Source: a virus. From it: 64,000 nucleotides of DNA. Made by a program: the position numbers and the translations under genes. Of the stretch, positions 765-51,102 are shown piece by piece. The stretch lies in the IMG/VR virus record IMGVR_UViG_3300020473_000020, positions 1 through 64,000 of that record. One strand, given 5' to 3'. The notes under the pieces are model-generated. The model saw only the letters and a program-made list of their open reading frames with translations, had not been told where the DNA came from and ran no database searches. Within the stretch, counting starts at the first letter, position 1, and each line of letters opens with the position of its first letter.

Positions 765-2387
765 TTACAGCTGGCTTGCAATCTTAGCGCGGATCTCAGC
801 AAGTGTCGTTGTACGTAACAGCTTACCGTCTTCAAACACGACGCGAAGCAGTCCGCCTTGCTCTTGTTCTTCGGTGCAGTTATCAGTCATGACTAGCTCG
901 CCATTAACCTCGTCAACACGGATAAGCCCTTTAGCTGACTTCTTCTTTTTATCCGTTTTAGGGTCTTTGAAGATAGCCACTGATTCGCCTGCTTTGATAA
1001 CGTTAGTTGCTTTCACAGCTGAGCCGTGTGTATCACGTGTAACGTACTGGTAGCTGTAAGAACCGATACCTAGTACAACCTTAGAGCAGAAACCTTTATC
1101 CATCAGACGCTGTAAGATAGCACGCTGACGTTCTAGTGTGATAGCATCACCGTAGATTGCACCAATGTGCTCATCCAACATCTTGTAACCTTTATCGGTG
1201 ATAGTTCCGCCGAAAATATCCCACAGGCACTCGATAAGACCTTTTACTTCGCACTCCATAAGTACGGTTGACTGTTCTGCATTGCCAAGACCTTCTACCG
1301 TGTAGAGCTTGCCGTCGAAGCTAAATGCTTCTGAGCCAGCTTTAACAGCACGCATGTGTGCCATCGCAAAGGTCAGCTCGGTGCTCATGAAGATCTCAGG
1401 GTGTAATAGGTAACCCGTTAGGATCTTAACTGGACAGCCTGAGTCTGGTCGGATAATGACCGCGCCGTCACGAGCTAGAATTTCTTCTTTAAGCTCTGGT
1501 AAGTATTCAGTTACTAACTTCCAGAAATCCCATGTGTCGCTAACGACTGACAAGATGCCCGTAGGCGACTGTTCACACATTAGGTAGCGGAAGAACTCAA
1601 TCTCACCCTCAAGCAGCCATGAACAGGTCACTGAGTGCTCAGTTGCATCAACCGACGCACCGACTAACTCGGTCTCAACATTCGCACCGTAGAACTTCTC
1701 AGCAAATAGAACTGCTGGGATCGTGTCGGTACCGACTAGGCCACTTGCTAAGTGTCCAAAACCTGATGCCGCTGCTGCCGCGCGACCAAACATGCCACGG
1801 AATGAAAAGTCATGCCCTTGGAATGGTACAAAATCGAGTGGCACTCCCGTCTTCTCAGCATACTCGCGGAACACCTTAAAATAGGCCGTTGCAGTGGTTG
1901 CGCTTGTCTGAATACCCCAGTTCTCACAGCTCATAACCGTCTCGATCATGTTGGTAAGCCAAGCAAAATCGGGGTGAGTGTTAACAACGGTGATAGGCGG
2001 TACTTGGTAAGGCACTAACGTACCCTCTTCCAATGCTTTGATGCGAAGTGGTAGGTAGCCAAGGTCATGCAAATTACGTAGGTACTCAACGTTAACGCTG
2101 TAGCCCAGCATTGAATCAAGTATGCGTTTGTGTGCGCGGACAGCGGCTTCTTTCGGAGCTTTAAAGAATAGGCTCCACTCGTCCATCAAGTAGTCCATAA
2201 CGAAGTATTGAAGACCCACAAAAGCAACATGTGCATTGTCAGGTACGTTACTTAGCTTACCATTACGCGATGTATAGTTCGCATAAACGCTGGTTACCTG
2301 CGGGTGGTATGCTCTTAAATGAAATTCCTTATACACATCTTTAGCTAATGAGCTGGTTTGTACGGTTGTTGATGTAGTTAAATTCAT
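765..2387 (-). CDS. nadV: Nicotinamide phosphoribosyltransferase-like (NAMPT/NadV)
   Basis: 540 aa, slightly longer than human NAMPT. The catalytic landmarks are present: HDFSFRG (about 192-198), GTDT (about 219-222), SVDATEHS with the catalytic His at about 251, IIRPDSG (about 311-317), a YGDA segment, and a C-terminal IFKDP...KSAKG block. The known family reaction is nicotinamide + PRPP to NMN. It lies 84 bp downstream of prs on the same strand, so prs would supply its phosphoribosyl donor. In the recently described phage NARP1 pathway, homologues of this pair act instead on ADP-ribose (ADPR-PP + nicotinamide to NAD+). Sequence reading alone cannot separate the two, but no NMN adenylyltransferase is seen in this window. 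Annotation as a NAMPT-fold enzyme is secure; the substrate is not. Confidence 0.93.
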   Translation of the reverse strand: MNLTTSTTVQTSSLAKDVYKEFHLRAYHPQVTSVYANYTSRNGKLSNVPDNAHVAFVGLQYFVMDYLMDEWSLFFKAPKEAAVRAHKRILDSMLGYSVNVEYLRNLHDLGYLPLRIKALEEGTLVPYQVPPITVVNTHPDFAWLTNMIETVMSCENWGIQTSATTATAYFKVFREYAEKTGVPLDFVPFQGHDFSFRGMFGRAAAAASGFGHLASGLVGTDTIPAVLFAEKFYGANVETELVGASVDATEHSVTCSWLLEGEIEFFRYLMCEQSPTGILSVVSDTWDFWKLVTEYLPELKEEILARDGAVIIRPDSGCPVKILTGYLLHPEIFMSTELTFAMAHMRAVKAGSEAFSFDGKLYTVEGLGNAEQSTVLMECEVKGLIECLWDIFGGTITDKGYKMLDEHIGAIYGDAITLERQRAILQRLMDKGFCSKVVLGIGSYSYQYVTRDTHGSAVKATNVIKAGESVAIFKDPKTDKKKKSAKGLIRVDEVNGELVMTDNCTEEQEQGGLLRVVFEDGKLLRTTTLAEIRAKIASQL

Positions 2388-2471
2388 TGTCTTTGTCTCT
2401 TTTGTTCAAGTCTTTTTAACTGACTTCTTAATAAGCCAGCACTGGTTTTTGTTCTGTGGACTACGTGAGGC

Positions 2472-3347
2472 TTACAGCTCAACCACAGTCAGGCTTACGT
2501 CTGCACCATTGAGTGCTTGTAACTGTTCACGTGTCTTGAATGAATCAGTTGTGTAGATAGTATCAATTAAGCCCGCGAATACTGACATACCTTGAGAGAA
2601 AATGCCATGGGTAACGTACAAAGAAATCGACTGTGCACCACGGTTTTTCGCAACTTTTGCAAGTTCAAGATACGTACGGCCACCGTCACACAAGTCATCT
2701 ACGATAATGAGGTCTTTACCAGCCACATCGCCATTGATTTCAGTTCGGATTATGTCACCTGTTGCCATATCGCGAAGTTTCTCGCCTTGTACAACGCTTG
2801 TGCAGCCCATGTACTTTGCTAACGTGTGCGTTTTCTTCGCAGCACCTGCATCGGGAGCAACCAATGTGTAGTCGTTTGATTTCAACTTAGCTGTTAGCGT
2901 TGTACAACGGTTGATTACGTTAACCTGTGAAAGATTCACCACGTTATTCAGTAGGGCAGTGGTTACATCGCTGTGCGCATCGGCAATCACAACTTTCGTA
3001 AAGTTCATTGAGTTAATAAGGTCGGCCATGACGCGTACGCTAAGCGCTTCACCTTCGTTACATACACGGTCTTGGCGAGCGTATGGGAAATATAGAGCTT
3101 TTAGCTCTAAGTTTAATGTCCCACCAAAGATGTTGCGAAGGGCATTAACCGCTAGTAATAGTTTCATCACAGCCGATGAGTTAGTTAATCGCGTCTCGAT
3201 TCGTGCGCTGAACTGTGTCTCTGTGTCTAGTTCGTTTAGCGCGTCATCTACGATGCGGATGTTTTCTTCACCACCGTTAAAAGTGATTGTCTCAACTTGT
3301 AATTCGCGTTCTTCTTGGCATCCGCTTTGTTTAATAAAAATTCTCAT
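2472..3347 (-). CDS. prs: Ribose-phosphate pyrophosphokinase family (Prs or ADP-ribose kinase Adps)
   Basis: 291 aa, shorter than the roughly 315 aa of cellular PRPP synthetases. It has the ATP-site YARQDR (about 89-94), the metal-site DAHS (about 123-126) and a PRPP-loop VDDLCDGGRT (216-225). Cellular enzymes usually have D-x-I/V-D-T-G-G-T there, so DGGRT is a divergent loop. It is the first gene of the prs-nadV operon and is read from a sigma70-like promoter overlapping an NrtR-like operator. The likely role is making the activated ribose donor for NadV; the alternative is pyrophosphorylation of ADP-ribose as in NARP1. Confidence 0.9.
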   Translation of the reverse strand: MRIFIKQSGCQEERELQVETITFNGGEENIRIVDDALNELDTETQFSARIETRLTNSSAVMKLLLAVNALRNIFGGTLNLELKALYFPYARQDRVCNEGEALSVRVMADLINSMNFTKVVIADAHSDVTTALLNNVVNLSQVNVINRCTTLTAKLKSNDYTLVAPDAGAAKKTHTLAKYMGCTSVVQGEKLRDMATGDIIRTEINGDVAGKDLIIVDDLCDGGRTYLELAKVAKNRGAQSISLYVTHGIFSQGMSVFAGLIDTIYTTDSFKTREQLQALNGADVSLTVVEL

Positions 3348-14367: not shown

Positions 14368-14445
14368 TGGTCGGCCGCGAAGGATTTGAACCTTCGACCA
14401 ATTGGTTAAAAGCCAACTGCTCTAACCTGACTGAGCTAGCGGCCG
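14368..14445 (-). tRNA. tRNA-Lys(UUU)
   Basis: 78 nt with encoded CCA. Acceptor CGGCCGC/GCGGCCG, anticodon loop CTTTTAA, T-arm GAAGGTTCAAATCCTTC. Confidence 0.9.
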
Positions 14446-14459
14446 ACATAAAAAGAGGT

Positions 14460-14534
14460 TGGACTAGGCGAGGATTTGAACCTCGCGTCCCGACCCTTCA
14501 ACCGAGGGCGGCTCTCACACTGAGCTACTAGTCC
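14460..14534 (-). tRNA. tRNA of uncertain isotype
   Basis: 75 nt without encoded CCA. Acceptor GGACTAG/CTAGTCC and T-loop TTCAAAT are good, but the best anticodon loop is CGGTTGA, which lacks U33, and the D-loop is short. The anticodon would be GUU (Asn) if read normally. It may be unusual or decaying. Confidence 0.6.
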
Positions 14535-14540
14535 ACAAAG

Positions 14541-14616
14541 TGGCGGATCCTACTGGGCTTGAACCAGTGACCTCTGGATTAACAGTCCATTGCTCTACCA
14601 ACTGAGCTAAGGATCC
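14541..14616 (-). tRNA. tRNA-Asn(GUU), copy 1
   Basis: 76 nt with encoded CCA. Acceptor GGATCCT/AGGATCC, anticodon loop CTGTTAA. Confidence 0.9.
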
Positions 14617-14626
14617 TAAATAAGTT

Positions 14627-14703
14627 TGGGGTGGCTCACGGGACTCGAACCCGTGACCGACGCGATCACAACGCGTAGCTCTACCAACTGAGCTAGAGCC
14701 ACC
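14627..14703 (-). tRNA. tRNA-His(GUG)
   Basis: 77 nt with G-1 paired to C73 (the histidine identity pair), anticodon loop TTGTGAT and encoded CCA. Confidence 0.92.
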
Positions 14704-14716
14704 ATACCAAAGAAAG

Positions 14717-14792
14717 TGGCGGATCCTACTGGACTTGAACCAGTGGCCTGATCGTTAACAGCGAACTGCTCTACCAACTGAGCTAAGGATCC
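14717..14792 (-). tRNA. tRNA-Asn(GUU), copy 2
   Basis: 76 nt, same acceptor and T-arm as copy 1 but a different anticodon stem (GTTCG/CGATC). Anticodon loop CTGTTAA. Probably a duplication of copy 1. Confidence 0.88.
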
Positions 14793-14797
14793 TAAAT

Positions 14798-14874
14798 TGG
14801 TCGGTGTTGTAGGATTTGAACCTACGACCCCTTCGCCCCAAACGAAGTGCGCTACCAAACTGCGCTAAACACCG
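14798..14874 (-). tRNA. tRNA-Pro(UGG)
   Basis: 77 nt with encoded CCA; anticodon stem CTTCG/CGAAG with loop TTTGGGG. Confidence 0.92.
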
Positions 14875-14883
14875 ATTTTAAAT

Positions 14884-14958
14884 TGGTAGGGGCGGCAAGA
14901 CTCGAACTTGCGAATGCTGGAATCAAAATCCAGTGCCTTACCACTTGGCTACGCCCCT
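14884..14958 (-). tRNA. tRNA-Gln(UUG)
   Basis: 75 nt with encoded CCA; anticodon stem CTGGA/TCCAG with loop TTTTGAT. Confidence 0.92.
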
Positions 14959-18018: not shown

Positions 18019-19194
18019 CTACCCTATGATCACGTGTGGCACAAAGCGTGACGTATCTTTTGTCACAGCGGTATCATCTTCACGGATAGTAAGGCCACAG
18101 GCTTTATCGCCAATGACCCACGAACCGATTAGGGTGTAGTCGTCACCGAATTTAGGCAATGAGTAGAACTTTTGAGCAACCATAGTGTGGTTACCGTAGT
18201 CACCCTCAACGGCTTCGACAACCTCGCCTGAGTCCAAGATCGTGATATTTGCGCCCTCACGGCTGTGTACAGGCTTAGTCACAAAGTGGTCACCTAAATC
18301 CTCTTTCTCTTCGCCCACGAAGTACGCTGGCAGAAGGTTAGGGTGGTTCGGGTAACGCTCCCACAACAACGGTAGGATCCCTTTGTTTAATAGCACTTTC
18401 CATGGCGGCTCGAAGAAGTGCATGTCTACGAGGCTCAGGTATTTACCGTAAGTATCTTCGAATGCGTGTTCCCATGGGTACAGCATGAAAAGGTTACGGA
18501 TAATGTTGTGCTCTAAGTCCGTGAAGCATGTCTCAGGCTCGAAGGCTAGGCCAATATCGTCAACGTAGATAAACGCTGTCTGTAGCCCCGCTTGGTGGGC
18601 ACAATCACGTAAGTAGTCAACGGTGGCCTTATCTTCTGATGAGCCTTTACAGCTTGCAAAGTACATGACGGTCTCTTTGTCTTCCATGTCTTCATAGATG
18701 GCATAGAAACGGTCAATCAACTTCTCTTGGATGCTATTGAATTGGTCAGTTGACGCAGGCAATTTGCCCGCGTCCACCTGCTCTTGAAGCCAGACCCACT
18801 GGAAGTAGGCCGCTTCGTAGATAGAGGTTGGTGTCTGACCATTCATTTCAAGTAGCTTAGGCGGGTTTTTGCCATCATACGCAAAGTCCATACGACCATA
18901 TAGCGTCTTGTCTTGCTTTTTCCAGCTGCGTTTAACCCACGTACGTAGATTGTGTGGAACTTCAAGCTTATCAAGTAGCTCGTCGCTCTGTACCACTTCA
19001 TCAACCAGTTTAAGGAACATTTGATTGATCTCGTTCGTAGCAGCTTCGAGGTGTTCTTCGATCTGCTTTAACGTGAACTGGTAGTAGCGGCTCTCATCCC
19101 AATAGACTTCACCATCAATTGTATGGAAGTTAAAGCCCAGCTTTTTAGCCAATTCGTCTAAATGTGGTCGTACGGTTGAATCTCTGCGTATCAT
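18019..19194 (-). CDS. yjfC: YjfC/YgiC-like ATP-grasp (glutathionylspermidine synthase family)
   Basis: 391 aa, full length. YGRMDFAYDG..PPKLLEMNGQ (about 98-118), PTSIYEAAYFQW (about 121-133), KPVHSREGANI and a C-terminal SRFVPHVI are typical of the YgiC/YjfC branch of the ATP-grasp family (PF03738). Members ligate an amine to a carboxyl with ATP; whether this branch makes glutathionylspermidine is not established. It is the last of six genes that match the enterobacterial yjfIJKLMC order. Confidence 0.9.
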   Translation of the reverse strand: MIRRDSTVRPHLDELAKKLGFNFHTIDGEVYWDESRYYQFTLKQIEEHLEAATNEINQMFLKLVDEVVQSDELLDKLEVPHNLRTWVKRSWKKQDKTLYGRMDFAYDGKNPPKLLEMNGQTPTSIYEAAYFQWVWLQEQVDAGKLPASTDQFNSIQEKLIDRFYAIYEDMEDKETVMYFASCKGSSEDKATVDYLRDCAHQAGLQTAFIYVDDIGLAFEPETCFTDLEHNIIRNLFMLYPWEHAFEDTYGKYLSLVDMHFFEPPWKVLLNKGILPLLWERYPNHPNLLPAYFVGEEKEDLGDHFVTKPVHSREGANITILDSGEVVEAVEGDYGNHTMVAQKFYSLPKFGDDYTLIGSWVIGDKACGLTIREDDTAVTKDTSRFVPHVIIG

Positions 19195-19200
19195 GTCTAA

Positions 19201-19743
19201 TTAGCCCCCGAAGCCACCGCGTGCTGAGAAGCCACCGCGTGATAATGTAACCGCCTTTGATGACGCTGTTGATGGTGCACTTGCGCGCACTGTCGAACGG
19301 CTCATTGTCACTGGGCGGCCTACGTTGTGAACTTTACCGATTGAAGAACCTGCACCCGTGATGAACGTGTAGCGGTCTTTCTTCGTTGTGTAAAGAGGAC
19401 GGTAGGTGTATGACGACGAACGACGACCGTCGCTGTCAAGCATGTTTGCTACCATGAAGCCTGCCATGAATGGCACAAAGCTGTTACTGCTGCTACCTGA
19501 GCCAGATTGGCACTGGCCAACACCGAAGTCGGTTTCGCAGGCTGCTTTGTTTGTGTACTTCACTTCTTTAAGCGCTTCTTGTTCAGCCTTCTTATATGCG
19601 GCCTCACACGTTGAATCAGCGACTTTATCAGACGCCTTACACTGTTCTAACGATTTGAAGGTTAGAACCTCTTCTTGTGATCCGCAGCCAGCTAGTGCTG
19701 AGGTACCCATTAGGGCAAGTGTTAGCTGTAGAGAACGTTTCAT
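19201..19743 (-). CDS. yjfM: YjfM/YgiB-like DUF1190 lipoprotein
   Basis: 180 aa. Lipobox LAGC at about 17-20 after a basic start; then the DUF1190 Cys pattern (C35, C46, C69, C78 area with FGVGQC) and a Ser/Arg/Gly tail ending in RGGFG, as in YgiB/YjfM. Predicted to be lipidated at the envelope. 6 nt before yjfC. Confidence 0.88.
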   Translation of the reverse strand: MKRSLQLTLALMGTSALAGCGSQEEVLTFKSLEQCKASDKVADSTCEAAYKKAEQEALKEVKYTNKAACETDFGVGQCQSGSGSSSNSFVPFMAGFMVANMLDSDGRRSSSYTYRPLYTTKKDRYTFITGAGSSIGKVHNVGRPVTMSRSTVRASAPSTASSKAVTLSRGGFSARGGFGG

Positions 19744-19757
19744 AGCGTTCTACCCCC

Positions 19758-20171
19758 TTACCCGTTCATGCTTGATGCGTTGATCAAACCAATGATTACT
19801 GAGATACCACCAAGGAAGATACCCGCTTGTACTTCTTGGTTCTTGATGCGTTGTACTAGGTCTGGCAGAGGTAAGCGGATCGCTGTGAACACTGCAAGTT
19901 GTACAAGACAGGCTACGATACCCCAAACTACGAAGTCTGCTAAAGCAACTGAGTTGTTCATAGCTGACATAAGTGGAATGGTGAAACCTGCGATAGCACC
20001 TACGTACGCGATTGATGCTGCTGTGTTATGGTTTTTCTTGATCTCTGTCCACTCGCAGTATGGCGTTACGCGTGAGTATACGAACGAGAATACAACGATC
20101 ATGGCAATTGCCACAGAGAAGTAAAGTGCGAAGTGTGGTAAGCCCGCTAGGCTCTTTTGAATTAATTCCAT
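19758..20171 (-). CDS. yjfL: YjfL-like DUF350 membrane protein
   Basis: 137 aa with four hydrophobic segments, including one with AYVGAIAGFTIPL and a final one with GIFLGGISVIIGLINA, as in DUF350. Inner-membrane protein of unknown activity. Third from the end of the yjf-like cluster. Confidence 0.85.
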   Translation of the reverse strand: MELIQKSLAGLPHFALYFSVAIAMIVVFSFVYSRVTPYCEWTEIKKNHNTAASIAYVGAIAGFTIPLMSAMNNSVALADFVVWGIVACLVQLAVFTAIRLPLPDLVQRIKNQEVQAGIFLGGISVIIGLINASSMNG

Positions 20172-20206
20172 TATCTTAGTCTCAATTAGTTTTTAATGGT
20201 TGTGAT

Positions 20207-20902
20207 TTAAAGCTGCTCGGCCAGTTTTGACACGCGCAGGTCGGTTGAATTAACGTGTTTGCCCAATGCGATACTGAATAGCACTTCATTGCTGCCATGG
20301 TCTTCAAGCGCTGTTAATAGCAGCTCGTGGGTACCATCAGACAACTCACGGCTAAATAGCATCATGTGGTTGTACACGTTGTAGTTTTTACCCTCGGAAT
20401 TATCAATGTCCTCGTCAACTTCGGCTAAGGTAGCCAATCCGTTGTGGTCATCTTCAAATACACGATTGTAAACTTGGCCGCCGTATTCATACGTCGTTGC
20501 ACGCATCTTTAACGTCGCTTCTTCAATCGCAGCTTCGCTGTGACAAGGATGTGACGCATCGTATGAGAACAATGTAAGCTCTTCCACGTTATCAACGTGA
20601 GGATTGCCCGTATAAATAACTTGAATAAGAACGTCTGCACTTGCGTAGAAGCGTTCCATTACACGACCGAAGCCTAGTTCAGCTTTTGATACAGCTTGGA
20701 TTGATAGGTGCTCAGGGCAGTTATCAATGTTCAGCTCATCTTTAAGCCACAGGATGTCCGTTGTATTAACGTCAACCTGCTTGCCCAATGCCAAGCCAAA
20801 GAGAGGCGCTGGGACTTCATTTCGCGGCTGTGGTTTATCATCAAAGGACGCCATGGCGGCGTCCTTCTTGATCCCAAGCCAAAGTAGGATCTTTTTCCAC
20901 AT
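20207..20902 (-). CDS. yjfK: YjfK-like DUF2491 protein
   Basis: 231 aa. The pattern PLFGLALGKQVD, FYASADVLIQV, LTLFSYDASHPC and NHMMLFSREL fits DUF2491 (YjfK). Soluble, function unknown. Its start codon overlaps the yjfJ stop by 1 base. Confidence 0.85.
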   Translation of the reverse strand: MWKKILLWLGIKKDAAMASFDDKPQPRNEVPAPLFGLALGKQVDVNTTDILWLKDELNIDNCPEHLSIQAVSKAELGFGRVMERFYASADVLIQVIYTGNPHVDNVEELTLFSYDASHPCHSEAAIEEATLKMRATTYEYGGQVYNRVFEDDHNGLATLAEVDEDIDNSEGKNYNVYNHMMLFSRELSDGTHELLLTALEDHGSNEVLFSIALGKHVNSTDLRVSKLAEQL

Positions 20903-21567
20903 TACGATAGCTCAGCTAGTAAGTCTTTTTGGCTCTTACCACCAGTGCGGTCAAGCTCTGCGAATTGCGCGTCAAGGTCACGTGCTGAGTCTAGCTCTTT
21001 AGACGCATCAAGCTTGTCTTGGCGCTTCTGCTGGATCTCTTTAGCACGACTTAGACTTGAAGCTGCATTAGACGTGTTGTTGTGTACAGCGTGAGAAGCT
21101 GACGCTAGGCTCTCGCGTACATCAAGGATTGCGTCTTGTGCTTTAAGCTCTTCAAGCTCAATGCCACGCGCTTCGATTTGCGCAGTTAGATTGTCGTAGT
21201 CGCGGTCTAGCGTAGCGATAGACTCAGATACAGAATCGAAGATTTTTTGCTGTGCTTCAAGCTGCGTCTGTGCTTTTTGCATTTCGCCCAGTGCTTTCAT
21301 TGCAAGCTCTTCGTTACCTGAATCACGTGCTTGGATTGCGCGTGCTTTGAACTTTGCAGCTGACTCAGTGAACTCAGCTACTTTGCGCTCTGCTTCGCGA
21401 CGTTTAGCACCGAACTCGATACGAGTGCCATCTGTCTTAGCAAGTGCTGCACGGTCATCGCGTAGTGCTTGCTCTGTTTGCGCAATAATCGTTTCTTGGT
21501 CTAACGCGTCTTCTAAATCGTGTTTAGCTTTACGGCCAAGTGTGAAAAGTTTTTTAAGTAATGACAT
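20902..21567 (-). CDS. yjfJ: PspA/IM30-family protein (YjfJ-like)
   Basis: 221 aa, almost wholly helical and coiled coil, starting with an amphipathic helix (MSLLKKLFTLGRKAKHDLED) as in PspA/Vipp1. The family binds stressed inner membrane and assembles into ESCRT-III-like polymers. No PspF-type activator is seen. Confidence 0.9.
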   Translation of the reverse strand: MSLLKKLFTLGRKAKHDLEDALDQETIIAQTEQALRDDRAALAKTDGTRIEFGAKRREAERKVAEFTESAAKFKARAIQARDSGNEELAMKALGEMQKAQTQLEAQQKIFDSVSESIATLDRDYDNLTAQIEARGIELEELKAQDAILDVRESLASASHAVHNNTSNAASSLSRAKEIQQKRQDKLDASKELDSARDLDAQFAELDRTGGKSQKDLLAELS

Positions 21568-21581
21568 ATCAATCCTACCTC

Positions 21582-21989
21582 TTATGCGGAAAGTTCGTCT
21601 TGGATAAGCTCAGCTACATTGAGCGCATTAACAGCAAGTAAGTTGACTTCTAGTGCTACGTTCGACAGCTTTGATGTTGACGAAAGCGCACCGAATACAA
21701 CGTAGTTGTCTTCACCATTGATGGTTTCAATTGCGATTGAGCTTAAAGGGAGTGGCTTCTGTAAGCGCATGAACGCATCGTTAGCTGCATTCACGTCGGC
21801 TACGTTTGCCGTTGGACAAATCACAATCTCAGCTGTGATCTGCTTATCGCCAACAGTGGCAATAACTGATAAGTCACCGTATTGAGGTAAGTTGAATGAA
21901 ATTACACTGCCATGGATGACAACGTCACTACCGATTGTTTCAAGTAGCTCAGCAACTTCTTTTACGGACAACACATTATTCTCAGACAT
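21582..21989 (-). CDS. yjfI: YjfI-like DUF2170 protein
   Basis: 135 aa. LPLSSIAIETINGEDNYVVF and FGALSSTSKLSNVALEVN match DUF2170 (YjfI). Small soluble protein of unknown function. First gene of the cluster; AAGGA precedes the ATG. Confidence 0.85.
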   Translation of the reverse strand: MSENNVLSVKEVAELLETIGSDVVIHGSVISFNLPQYGDLSVIATVGDKQITAEIVICPTANVADVNAANDAFMRLQKPLPLSSIAIETINGEDNYVVFGALSSTSKLSNVALEVNLLAVNALNVAELIQDELSA

Positions 21990-27724: not shown

Positions 27725-27934
27725 ATGCAGAAAGATAATCCTCCTGTAGACCGTCGAACGCGCATACCTATTTGCCCTAAGTGTGATGCTGAAATCACAG
27801 GCAAAGGACATGGCTACGGTCAGCAATCATACGTTTGCTCGAACTGTAATAGTTGGGGCGCATGGTCAGACCGTAAAACGATACGCAATCCAGCAAACCC
27901 TAAGAAGAGGGCAGCTAAGCGGGGGAGTGTATGA
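27725..27934 (+). CDS. Small zinc-ribbon protein
   Basis: 69 aa with CPKC and CSNC pairs 17 residues apart and a basic tail. The stop overlaps the start of the channel gene (ATGA), so the two are coupled. Confidence 0.7.
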   Translation: MQKDNPPVDRRTRIPICPKCDAEITGKGHGYGQQSYVCSNCNSWGAWSDRKTIRNPANPKKRAAKRGSV

Positions 27935-29034
27935 ACCTGCTAGCGATACTTAAACGCCGACGCTATAAGCGCCGTGTCGGTCTAAAGTCTATTAAAGACT
28001 CCCTTAGAAATGCGGTATTACAGCTCAGTGTGATGATGTCCATACACTCGATGCTTATTATGCTGATCGAGAAAAAGAGCGTGTTTGAATCAATCTGGTT
28101 CACGATGGTCTCTGTAACGACGGTTGGTTACGGTGGTTTTATACCGCAAACGACGGCGGGTAAAGTGACCACAATGGTACTCGTGTTCTCTGTCGGCATC
28201 TGGCTCGTCGCACACACAGTGAGCTTAATCGTTGAATACGCAACGGAACGAACAAAACAAAAAAGAATAGGTAACTGGAACTGGAAAATGAAAGAAGCAA
28301 TCGTACTGATGGGTGCCCCAAGTCGCGGCGCAGAGGTCTTCCTTAAAAACTTGTTAGAACAAATCCGCGCAACTGAACTACTGGCGCATAAAGATGTCGT
28401 GATAGTCTCAACCAACTTTCCTGATGGCCTACCAGAATCGGTGGCCGACCTTGGCGCTGTCCTTTTGAACTACAACCGTGATGATAAGGCGCTGTATGAA
28501 AAAGACGTCATAAAGAACGCCACAATGTTCTATTTCTTGGCCTCCGATGAAGTAAACAACGTGTCGAACTCAGTTACGTTTAACGCGCTTAGCTTGCTTG
28601 TACACAGTGAGGCTAAGCCTTGGCAAGTCATAGCTGAGACAACCAAAGAGTGTGACCGAGAACGCTTCTTAGGTATGGGCGCTACTGCAATTATACGTCC
28701 TATCCGTGCTTACCCTGAAATGGCCGTACGTGCGATGGTTAACGAACAAAATGCAGCCTTCATCGAAAACATGTTTAGTTCGAAAGGCGATGAGCCACAA
28801 GTCTTTCCCCTTCGCTACGTTGGCACATGGAGCAAGCTGGCTTTGCGTTGCATCGACAATGACCTAGGCAGCCCAGTTGGTTATATCAATGCCGACGACA
28901 AGCTCATAACGAACCCCAAAGGCTCCGATCATATCTATGCAAAGGGTGTTCAGCTGCTCATTAAAGAGGGCGATAAGCGCGCTCTTAAAATCCTTGCGAG
29001 CTGGGCTTACACTGACGAAGACGATGGTTGTTAA
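27931..29034 (+). CDS. Two-TM potassium channel with RCK/TrkA-like domain
   Basis: 367 aa. Residues about 28-48 form TM1, IWFTMVSVTTVGYGG (about 55-69) the pore helix and selectivity filter, and about 78-102 TM2. A cytosolic Rossmann-like region follows (AIVLMGAPSRGAEV, VVIVSTNFPD), matching an RCK/TrkA-N domain as in Kch-type channels, then a TrkA-C-like tail. The intact TVGYG predicts K+ selectivity. The first glycine motif of the RCK domain is GAPSRG, not GxGxxG, so nucleotide binding is uncertain. It would alter the host membrane potential or K+ balance. Confidence 0.87.
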   Translation: MNLLAILKRRRYKRRVGLKSIKDSLRNAVLQLSVMMSIHSMLIMLIEKKSVFESIWFTMVSVTTVGYGGFIPQTTAGKVTTMVLVFSVGIWLVAHTVSLIVEYATERTKQKRIGNWNWKMKEAIVLMGAPSRGAEVFLKNLLEQIRATELLAHKDVVIVSTNFPDGLPESVADLGAVLLNYNRDDKALYEKDVIKNATMFYFLASDEVNNVSNSVTFNALSLLVHSEAKPWQVIAETTKECDRERFLGMGATAIIRPIRAYPEMAVRAMVNEQNAAFIENMFSSKGDEPQVFPLRYVGTWSKLALRCIDNDLGSPVGYINADDKLITNPKGSDHIYAKGVQLLIKEGDKRALKILASWAYTDEDDGC

Positions 29035-49809: not shown

Positions 49810-51102
49810 TTAAGCCTTAGCTGTTGCGTTTGGGTCGTTATAGACATCACGGTCTAGCTTACCTTCTGAGTGAGCCACAACCATCGTCACGGCGCTATCA
49901 CCCGTTAAGTTTACGGCTGTTCGGATCATGTCTAAGATAGCGTCCACAGCCATGATCATAAGGATCCCTTCTACAGGTAAACCTACTTGTGAGAAGACCA
50001 TTACGAGTGTCACGGTACCAGCGCCTCGAACCGCTGCTGTGCCCATGCTAGCAAGCGTGGCGGTTAGGACTACCATGCCAAGCTGCTCGAACGTTAGCGT
50101 TATACCAAACGCTTGCGCTACAAAAATCGTGGCAACACCCTGCATAATACTGGTGCCGTCCATGTTTAAGGTTGCACCGAGTGGTACGTTAAACGAGGTT
50201 ACCGACTTACAGACACCCATACCTTTTTCTAGAACGCGTTGCGTCACTGGGATCGTAGCTGAGCTTGATGCAGTCGAGAAACCGAAGAGCCAGACTTGCG
50301 GCATTTTCTTAAAAAAGTTGATTGGATTGATGCGCGCAAAGACAGCCATATAAGCAGGGTAGACAACTAGCATTTGGATAGCGAGTGCAGCGACAACGAC
50401 AAAGAAGTAGCCCATTAATGGTGCAAGCGCGTCGACGCCTTTATCAGCTATTGTTTTTGTCATCATCATGAATAGGCCATACGGGGCTAATCCCATGACA
50501 GTTTTTACAACAGACAGTGTAATATCGTTGGCGTCTTTAGCTAAGTTCTTTACGTTTTGATTGCCTGTCGCAGCCGCGTGGCCTAATACGGCAATACCTA
50601 TGAAAACTGCAAATACCATAACAGCAATCATGTTTCCCTCTACCATGGATTGTATCGGGTTGGCAGGTATCATGTTCAAAAATGTTTCAACCATCGGCGG
50701 TGCTTGTACAACCTCGACGGTCTTACCTGTAACCTCAGCGTTAACACCCTCACCAACGCCAAAGGCCAGCGCAAGTGCAAGACCCAATGTGATAGCAATG
50801 ACCGTCGTGAGGACGTAACTGGCCATCGCTTTAACTCCCATGCGGCCAGCTTGGCCTACGTCATCATTATCGGCGACTGCGAGCATGATGCCTAGAAAAA
50901 CGAGAGGTATAACCATCATCTTCATCAGGCCAATGAAGCCCTGACCCCCAACATAGAACAAGCCGTCAAGAATGTATGTTCGGAATACTGAACCCTCTGC
51001 GGCTAGACCTGTTGCTTGAAGGAAAACACCCACTACCACTGCGGCTAGTAAGGCTATAAGTATTTGTGCGGTTAAGTTACCGCGTATCTGGATCCCACTC
51101 AT
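49810..51102 (-). CDS. Dicarboxylate/amino-acid:cation symporter (DAACS, GltP/DctA fold)
   Basis: 430 aa, full length with about eight TM segments plus two hairpins. The signatures are intact: HP1 serine-rich TASSSATIP (277-285), TM7 NMDGT (313-317) and TM8 DAILDMIRTAVNLTGD (387-402). These bind Na+ or H+ and substrate; the Asp and Arg in TM8 suggest an acidic substrate such as glutamate, aspartate or a C4-dicarboxylate. Base composition and codons look like its neighbours. It lies between terminase and portal blocks and is very unusual in a phage. Confidence 0.9.
   Translation of the reverse strand: MSGIQIRGNLTAQILIALLAAVVVGVFLQATGLAAEGSVFRTYILDGLFYVGGQGFIGLMKMMVIPLVFLGIMLAVADNDDVGQAGRMGVKAMASYVLTTVIAITLGLALALAFGVGEGVNAEVTGKTVEVVQAPPMVETFLNMIPANPIQSMVEGNMIAVMVFAVFIGIAVLGHAAATGNQNVKNLAKDANDITLSVVKTVMGLAPYGLFMMMTKTIADKGVDALAPLMGYFFVVVAALAIQMLVVYPAYMAVFARINPINFFKKMPQVWLFGFSTASSSATIPVTQRVLEKGMGVCKSVTSFNVPLGATLNMDGTSIMQGVATIFVAQAFGITLTFEQLGMVVLTATLASMGTAAVRGAGTVTLVMVFSQVGLPVEGILMIMAVDAILDMIRTAVNLTGDSAVTMVVAHSEGKLDRDVYNDPNATAKA

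What the first reader, a model, noticed from the sequence alone, without database searches (positions are those of the whole stretch)
27931..29034. Intact two-TM potassium channel with a cytosolic RCK-like domain in a phage
The selectivity filter TVGYG, both TM helices and a Rossmann-like C-terminal domain are present in one 367-aa gene. Viral K+ channels are known mainly from algal viruses and are very small; a channel with a regulatory domain in a tailed phage is unusual. As I recall, bacterial yjfI/pspA-type loci sometimes include such channels, so this gene may share an origin with the yjf cluster 6 kb away.
Basis: partly seen in the sequence, partly recalled or inferred. Interest (0 to 1): 0.74.

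Follow-up and report, generated by a model that had tools for sequence, protein, structure and literature searches.

The report
MthK-like potassium channel in a phage
A large bacterial virus carries a complete gene for a potassium channel with an internal sensor domain; it is not the channel that normally belongs to the membrane-stress gene cluster lying 6 kb away, but other phages repeatedly place a potassium channel beside the same spermidine-attaching type of enzyme, so the two may work together.

Summary
Window 27931-29034 (+) is an intact 367-aa gene in a genuine tailed-phage contig. It has two TM helices, a pore helix, a filter TVGYG (then G instead of the usual D) and a full RCK-type C-terminal half. 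The AlphaFold2 model (pLDDT 86) matches MthK end to end.

Pore-only phage K+ channels are already published. RCK-bearing ones are rare, but I found three more viral ones, one in cultured roseophage DSS3_VP1. Bacterial yjf clusters do usually contain a 2TM/RCK channel (18 of 27 sampled; already published). That channel is a different clade, and placing the phage protein in it is rejected (p-AU 0.0076). The phage's yjf cluster derives from bacterial yjf operons, but its channel slot is empty. Shared origin is therefore not supported.

A functional link remains plausible. In 7 of 48 viral GSPS (YjfC-type ligase) lineages a K+ channel gene lies within 262 bp of GSPS on the same strand, with three channel architectures, and was never elsewhere in the flanks.

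Best reading: an RCK-gated K+ channel acquired by the phage, probably serving the same K+/polyamine/membrane function. No activity was tested.

The parts
27931..29034 (+). 2TM/RCK potassium channel gene, 367 aa (P0001)
27991..28071 (+). TM1 helix (residues 21-47)
   Evidence: DSSP on AlphaFold2 model
28081..28116 (+). pore helix (residues 51-62)
28120..28137 (+). selectivity filter TVGYG followed by G (residues 64-69); the other 13 family members and all 55 viral pores scanned have D at the last position
28153..28269 (+). TM2 / inner helix (residues 75-113)
28291..28710 (+). RCK N-lobe, Rossmann-like (about residues 121-260); MthK Ca2+-site residues D184/E210/E212 align with N209/E236/T238
28789..28965 (+). 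RCK C-lobe (about residues 287-345)
27725..27934 (+). 69-aa zinc-ribbon-like ORF (weak Lar-like match) whose stop overlaps the channel start (ATGA), so probably translated together with it
21582..21989 (-). DUF2170 (YjfI/CesT-like), first gene of the yjf cluster
20902..21567 (-). PspA/IM30 (YjfJ)
20207..20902 (-). DUF2491 (YjfK); overlaps PspA at 20902, so the channel gene present here in 18 of 27 sampled bacterial loci is absent
19758..20171 (-). DUF350 (YjfL)
19201..19743 (-). DUF1190 lipoprotein-like (YjfM)
18019..19194 (-). GSP_synth ATP-grasp ligase (GSPS/YjfC-type)

Best explanation
The gene encodes a tetrameric, K+-selective, MthK-type channel whose cytosolic RCK domains form a gating ring and open or close the pore on binding an unidentified small ligand or ion. 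The fold is shown by prediction; tetramerisation, conduction and gating are inferred from the family. It is a phage acquisition from a family of mostly stand-alone proteobacterial RCK channels, not the yjf cluster's own channel (shown). The phage separately acquired a bacterial yjf cluster that lacks a channel gene in its usual slot (shown). Inferred: the channel acts in trans with that cluster during infection. It would let K+ leave, or set membrane potential, as polyamine chemistry (GSPS peptide-polyamine ligase) and PspA-type membrane maintenance change the cell's cation and envelope state. That would be the same partnership that other phages build by putting a K+ channel gene directly beside GSPS.
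For: Channel identity and fold. Phage contig. Family placement: 279 versus 41 bits; trees and AU test. Empty channel slot. Phage GSPS nests among bacterial yjf-operon GSPS, sister to two channel-bearing operons, support 0.83. Functional pairing: in 80 viral GSPS loci (48 clusters at 70% identity), 7 clusters have a K+ channel gene within 262 bp of GSPS on the same strand and none has one elsewhere in the flanks. The near zone is 8.2% of the flank bases, so seven of seven by chance is about 2e-8 if placement is uniform. These channels are pore-only, multi-TM and 2TM/RCK, so the pairing recurs with unrelated channels. Five of 36 other GSPS phages carry a channel elsewhere. 0 of 18 terminase relatives have either gene.
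Against: In this phage the channel is 6 kb from the cluster, on the opposite strand, with a zinc-ribbon gene. Most viral GSPS lineages (41 of 48) have no channel nearby, and 31 of 36 such records tested have none detected. Nine of 27 bacterial DUF2491 loci also lack a channel, so the empty slot may be ancestral. Ten phage-type relatives in bacteria are not linked to yjf genes. The filter is followed by G rather than D. No ligand, conductance or expression data exist; 18 terminase relatives, many of them fragments, is a small control.
Confidence: 0.5

Rival explanations
1. A stand-alone phage accessory gene: the channel depolarises the host membrane or drains K+ (for example to exclude other phages, help lysis timing or blunt membrane-based defences) and has nothing to do with the yjf cluster.
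For: Separate transcription unit and strand; 103 of 105 channel-found viral loci have no GSPS near; phage relative L132 has no yjf genes or GSPS. Chlorovirus channels matter for infection and prevent hyperinfection (PMC6163359).
Against: Both the channel and GSPS are absent from all 18 terminase relatives, yet both are in this phage; channel/GSPS adjacency recurs in 7 other viral lineages. A pore-only protein would suffice for depolarisation; here a full RCK domain is retained.
Confidence: 0.35
2. One reading: the channel is the yjf cluster's own channel, moved 6 kb away inside the phage.
For: Bacterial yjf clusters usually carry a 2TM/RCK channel; the phage's slot is empty; Indioceanicola links a phage-type channel to a yjf-like cluster.
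Against: Different clade from all 18 yjf-operon channels; AU test p 0.0076 against joining them.
Confidence: 0.05
3. The protein folds as a channel but no longer conducts K+ selectively, because the conserved Asp after the filter is Gly; it may be a decaying or repurposed gene.
For: G69 is unique among 14 family members and 55 viral pores; long branch in trees.
Against: Open frame, ordinary phage GC and GC3 (0.47/0.52), confident pore model. From general knowledge, hERG and Kir channels work without Asp at this position.
Confidence: 0.08
4. Host DNA wrongly joined to a phage contig.
For: A cluster of bacterial-type genes in a metagenomic virus record.
Against: Channel and cluster lie in one contig with phage genes and even GC.
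Confidence: 0.02

Closest known systems
MthK (Ca2+-gated K+ channel, Methanothermobacter) and GsuK
   Same: 2TM pore plus RCK gating domains; MthK is the top fold match over the full length
   Different: About 20% identity; MthK Ca2+-site residues D184/E210/E212 are N209/E236/T238 here, so the same Ca2+ site is not expected; filter followed by G; phage-encoded
K+ channel of the bacterial yjf operon (DUF2170-PspA-channel-DUF2491-DUF350-DUF1190-GSPS; Ravi et al. 2024, PMC11237479)
   Same: Same domain architecture; belongs to the cluster type that this phage also carries
   Different: Separate clade; profile score 41 versus 279 bits; AU p 0.0076
Phage K+ channels (Greiner et al. 2018, PMC6163359; PHROGs 7872 and 14690)
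   Same: K+ channel genes in tailed phages
   Different: Those are pore-only or multi-TM, 119-259 aa in the passages read; no RCK domain is mentioned; only the pore is similar
L132 phage channel (IMG/VR 3300035698_035316) and Indioceanicola profundi channel
   Same: Same family over the full length (223 and 375 bits with the core profile)
   Different: 28.5% and 27% identity; filter TVGYGD; L132 sits beside a DHH-family gene, Indioceanicola in a yjf-like operon
DSS3_VP1 gp028 (YP_010105401.1, annotated hypothetical)
   Same: 2TM/RCK channel in a cultured phage, 12 bp before GSPS
   Different: Belongs to the yjf-operon-type clade, not to this protein's clade

Membership tests
K+ channel (Ion_trans_2) | Two TM helices, pore helix and TVGYG-type filter | tested here: met
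   Pfam above cut-off; model and MthK pore superposition 1.6 A over 81 residues
K+ channel (Ion_trans_2) | Asp directly after the filter (common, not universal) | tested here: not met
   TVGYGG; other family members and viral pores have D
K+ channel (Ion_trans_2) | Conducts K+ as a tetramer | not testable with these tools
   Monomer model only
RCK-regulated (MthK-type) channel | C-terminal RCK N- and C-lobes | tested here: met
   Family profile to MthK E 1.3e-23; Foldseek/VIA matches; relatives pass TrkA_N or Slo-like_RCK cut-offs
RCK-regulated (MthK-type) channel | MthK primary Ca2+ site (D184, E210, E212); specific to MthK, not to all RCK channels | tested here: not met
   N209, E236, T238 by alignment
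Channel of the bacterial yjf operon | Groups with channels located between PspA and DUF2491 | tested here: not met
   AU test p 0.0076
Channel of the bacterial yjf operon | Located inside the yjf cluster | tested here: not met
   6 kb away, opposite strand; PspA and DUF2491 overlap
yjf cluster (Ravi et al. group 3) | DUF2170, PspA, DUF2491, DUF350, DUF1190, GSPS in order | tested here: met
   same order as sampled bacterial operons except for the channel
Phage GSPS-K+ channel pair | Channel gene immediately beside GSPS, same strand | tested here: not met
   Met in 7 other viral lineages, not in this window

The most novel reading that the evidence does not exclude
K+ channel plus peptide-polyamine ligase (GSPS) is an undescribed phage module: different phages independently pair GSPS with unrelated K+ channels, and this phage replaced the missing channel of its captured yjf cluster with an RCK channel from another clade. 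The module would control K+/polyamine charge balance and membrane state in infected cells.
Probability: 0.35. Interest if true: 0.72.

Novelty: new variant of a known kind. Interest (0 to 1): 0.52.

Why it matters
Phage K+ channels have been listed without a known function. Finding that channels of three architectures repeatedly sit next to the same spermidine-type ligase gives a testable functional context. It also extends to phages a proposed bacterial operon linking PspA, polyamines and a K+ channel, for which a 2024 paper found no experimental data (PMC10948618). DSS3_VP1 is a named phage with a complete genome record in which the pair could be tested.

Tried and rejected
Single-sequence scans of IMG/VR and GTDB contigs with the channel found no relatives, and tblastn in GenBank phages found none at 1e-5; family profiles were needed. 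Scans with the yjf-operon channel profile and with the window PspA found no viral relatives; these depend on short peptide patterns, and the channel scan missed DSS3_VP1 and L189, so absence is weak evidence. PADLOC gave no defence family for the channel or cluster. Promoter/terminator scans gave no more sites than shuffles. A first AU test held an ill-chosen clade and was replaced by the test. Neighbours of bacterial phage-type channels showed no recurrent partner gene, except that L116 and L117 share the same upstream gene. L133 (545-kb 'virus' record) has a partial RCK channel but carries histidine-kinase-like and HD-GYP-like genes, so I did not count it as a phage case.

Full report
Observation. 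The ORF at 27931-29034 (+) is intact, 367 aa, starting with ATG. Pfam recognises the pore (Ion_trans_2, E 2.1e-12). Two helices, a pore helix and TVGYG are present; the residue after the filter is Gly, where the other 13 members of the aligned family and all 55 viral pores examined have Asp. Pfam does not recognise the C-terminal half in this sequence. A 14-member family profile aligns with MthK through the RCK domain (E 1.3e-23), and several relatives pass TrkA_N or Slo-like RCK cut-offs. The AlphaFold2 model has mean pLDDT 86.3 and pTM 0.65. MthK is the top PDB match over 340 columns; VIA-align gives MthK Z 16.4 (rmsd 11.4 A over 285 residues), GsuK Z 16.2 (6.1 A over 230), and the isolated MthK pore Z 13.4 (1.6 A over 81). 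The RCK orientation is not fixed by the model. MthK's Ca2+-site residues (D184, E210, E212; the site is known to me from the literature, the alignment is) are N209, E236 and T238 here, so gating by that site is not expected.

The phage. Head protein, head maturation protease, terminase and primase are recognised. The terminase is 45% identical to that of Rhizobium phage RHph_Y65 (Kleczkowskaviridae) and about 40% to those of E. coli phage IME392 and Thermus phage phiLo. The window lies in a 138,059-base virus record. GC of the channel (0.47) equals that of the window. None of 18 terminase relatives has a K+ channel or GSPS, although many records are fragments; both therefore look like lineage-specific acquisitions.

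The yjf cluster. On the minus strand, 18019-21989 holds DUF2170, PspA, DUF2491, DUF350, DUF1190 and GSPS in the order of the bacterial operon. Ravi et al. [quoted passage not shown] In 27 sampled Pseudomonadota DUF2491 loci, 18 have a full-length 2TM/RCK channel immediately upstream of DUF2491. In the phage, PspA and DUF2491 overlap at base 20902, so that gene is missing. The phage GSPS nests within bacterial yjf-operon GSPS, nearest to two channel-bearing operons (support 0.83). Six bacterial clusters with the other genes also lack a channel, so loss in the phage is likely but not proven.

Is the phage channel that missing channel? No. All 18 operon channels score 174-694 bits with their own profile and 20-72 with the phage-type profile. 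The phage protein, left out of the core profile, scores 279 against 41. The two clades are split with full support, and forcing the phage protein into the operon clade costs 12.8 log-likelihood units, p-AU 0.0076. Long branches are present, so its exact place inside its own clade is unsure. Eleven of 398 sampled Pseudomonadota genomes carry the phage-type channel at E below 1e-90. The ten with fetched flanks (loci of 3.6 to 19 kb, three cut by contig ends) show no yjf genes by HMM. One relative, in Indioceanicola profundi, does follow DUF350-PspA-DUF1190-GSPS directly, so the association can arise for this clade too.

Other phages. I found 105 viral loci with a K+ channel pore; in the first 55 checked, all but one have at most 114 residues from the filter to the end, hence no RCK domain. 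Greiner et al. 2018 (PMC6163359) had already reported phage K+ channels; that text does not mention RCK domains. Full-length RCK channels were found in L132 (a phage contig; same clade, 28.5% identity), L189 and DSS3_VP1 gp028 (yjf-operon-type clade).

Channel beside GSPS. Among 80 viral GSPS loci (48 clusters at 70% identity), nine loci in seven clusters have a K+ channel gene 0-262 bp from GSPS, or overlapping it, on the same strand; no channel was found elsewhere in the 1.37 Mb of flanks. With 8.2% of the flank bases counted as near, seven of seven is about 2e-8 under uniform placement; this simple model ignores operon structure. The channels differ: pore-only (L183, L242/243, L254, L255), longer multi-TM (L240/241) and 2TM/RCK (L189, DSS3_VP1). 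L254/L180 has channel, DUF1190-like, GSPS and DUF350 in a row, in a contig whose first ORF looks like a portal protein. This pairing was not found in the papers searched, but the held library is partial.

Mechanism. Shown: sequence, fold by prediction, family placement, neighbourhoods. Inferred: tetramer, K+ selectivity, RCK gating, function with the yjf genes. The proposal is that the channel adjusts K+ flux or membrane potential while the ligase and its partners alter polyamine conjugates and the envelope. The main rival is an independent accessory channel, for example for membrane depolarisation or superinfection exclusion; the present data do not decide between them.

Verdict. A real, intact, rare variant of a known kind. 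The recurrent GSPS/K+ channel pairing in phages is the more interesting result.

Noticed in passing
L183, L189, L206, L240-L243, L254, L255 (viral GSPS loci): K+ channel genes of several unrelated architectures lie directly beside GSPS on the same strand.
   Followed up: partly
window 49810-51102 (-): Sodium:dicarboxylate symporter (SDF, E 2e-113) lies between head-region genes and the terminase; PHROG 16930 is a phage family of it.
   Followed up: no
window 765-3347 (-): Nicotinamide phosphoribosyltransferase plus ribose-phosphate pyrophosphokinase, a NAD+ salvage pair; DSS3_VP1 also has NAMPT shortly before its channel/GSPS pair.
   Followed up: no
L132:7787-8737 (+): In the second phage with this channel family, a DHH-family phosphoesterase-like gene (just under the Pfam cut-off) ends about 16 bp before the channel; a possible hint at a nucleotide ligand.
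   Followed up: no
L228:8442-9236: The only other viral GSPS locus in the scan with a PspA gene, followed by DUF1190 and GSPS.
   Followed up: no
L199, L207, L208, L210: Phage records of 416-465 kb share a DUF1190-GSPS-DUF350 cluster and carry a K+ channel elsewhere in the genome.
   Followed up: no
L003:8167-9999 (NZ_CP062152.1): On 880-kb Vibrio plasmids a distant RCK channel directly follows an RNA ligase gene.
   Followed up: no
window 14368-14958 (-): Seven tRNA genes in a row, three of them tRNA-Asn.
   Followed up: no
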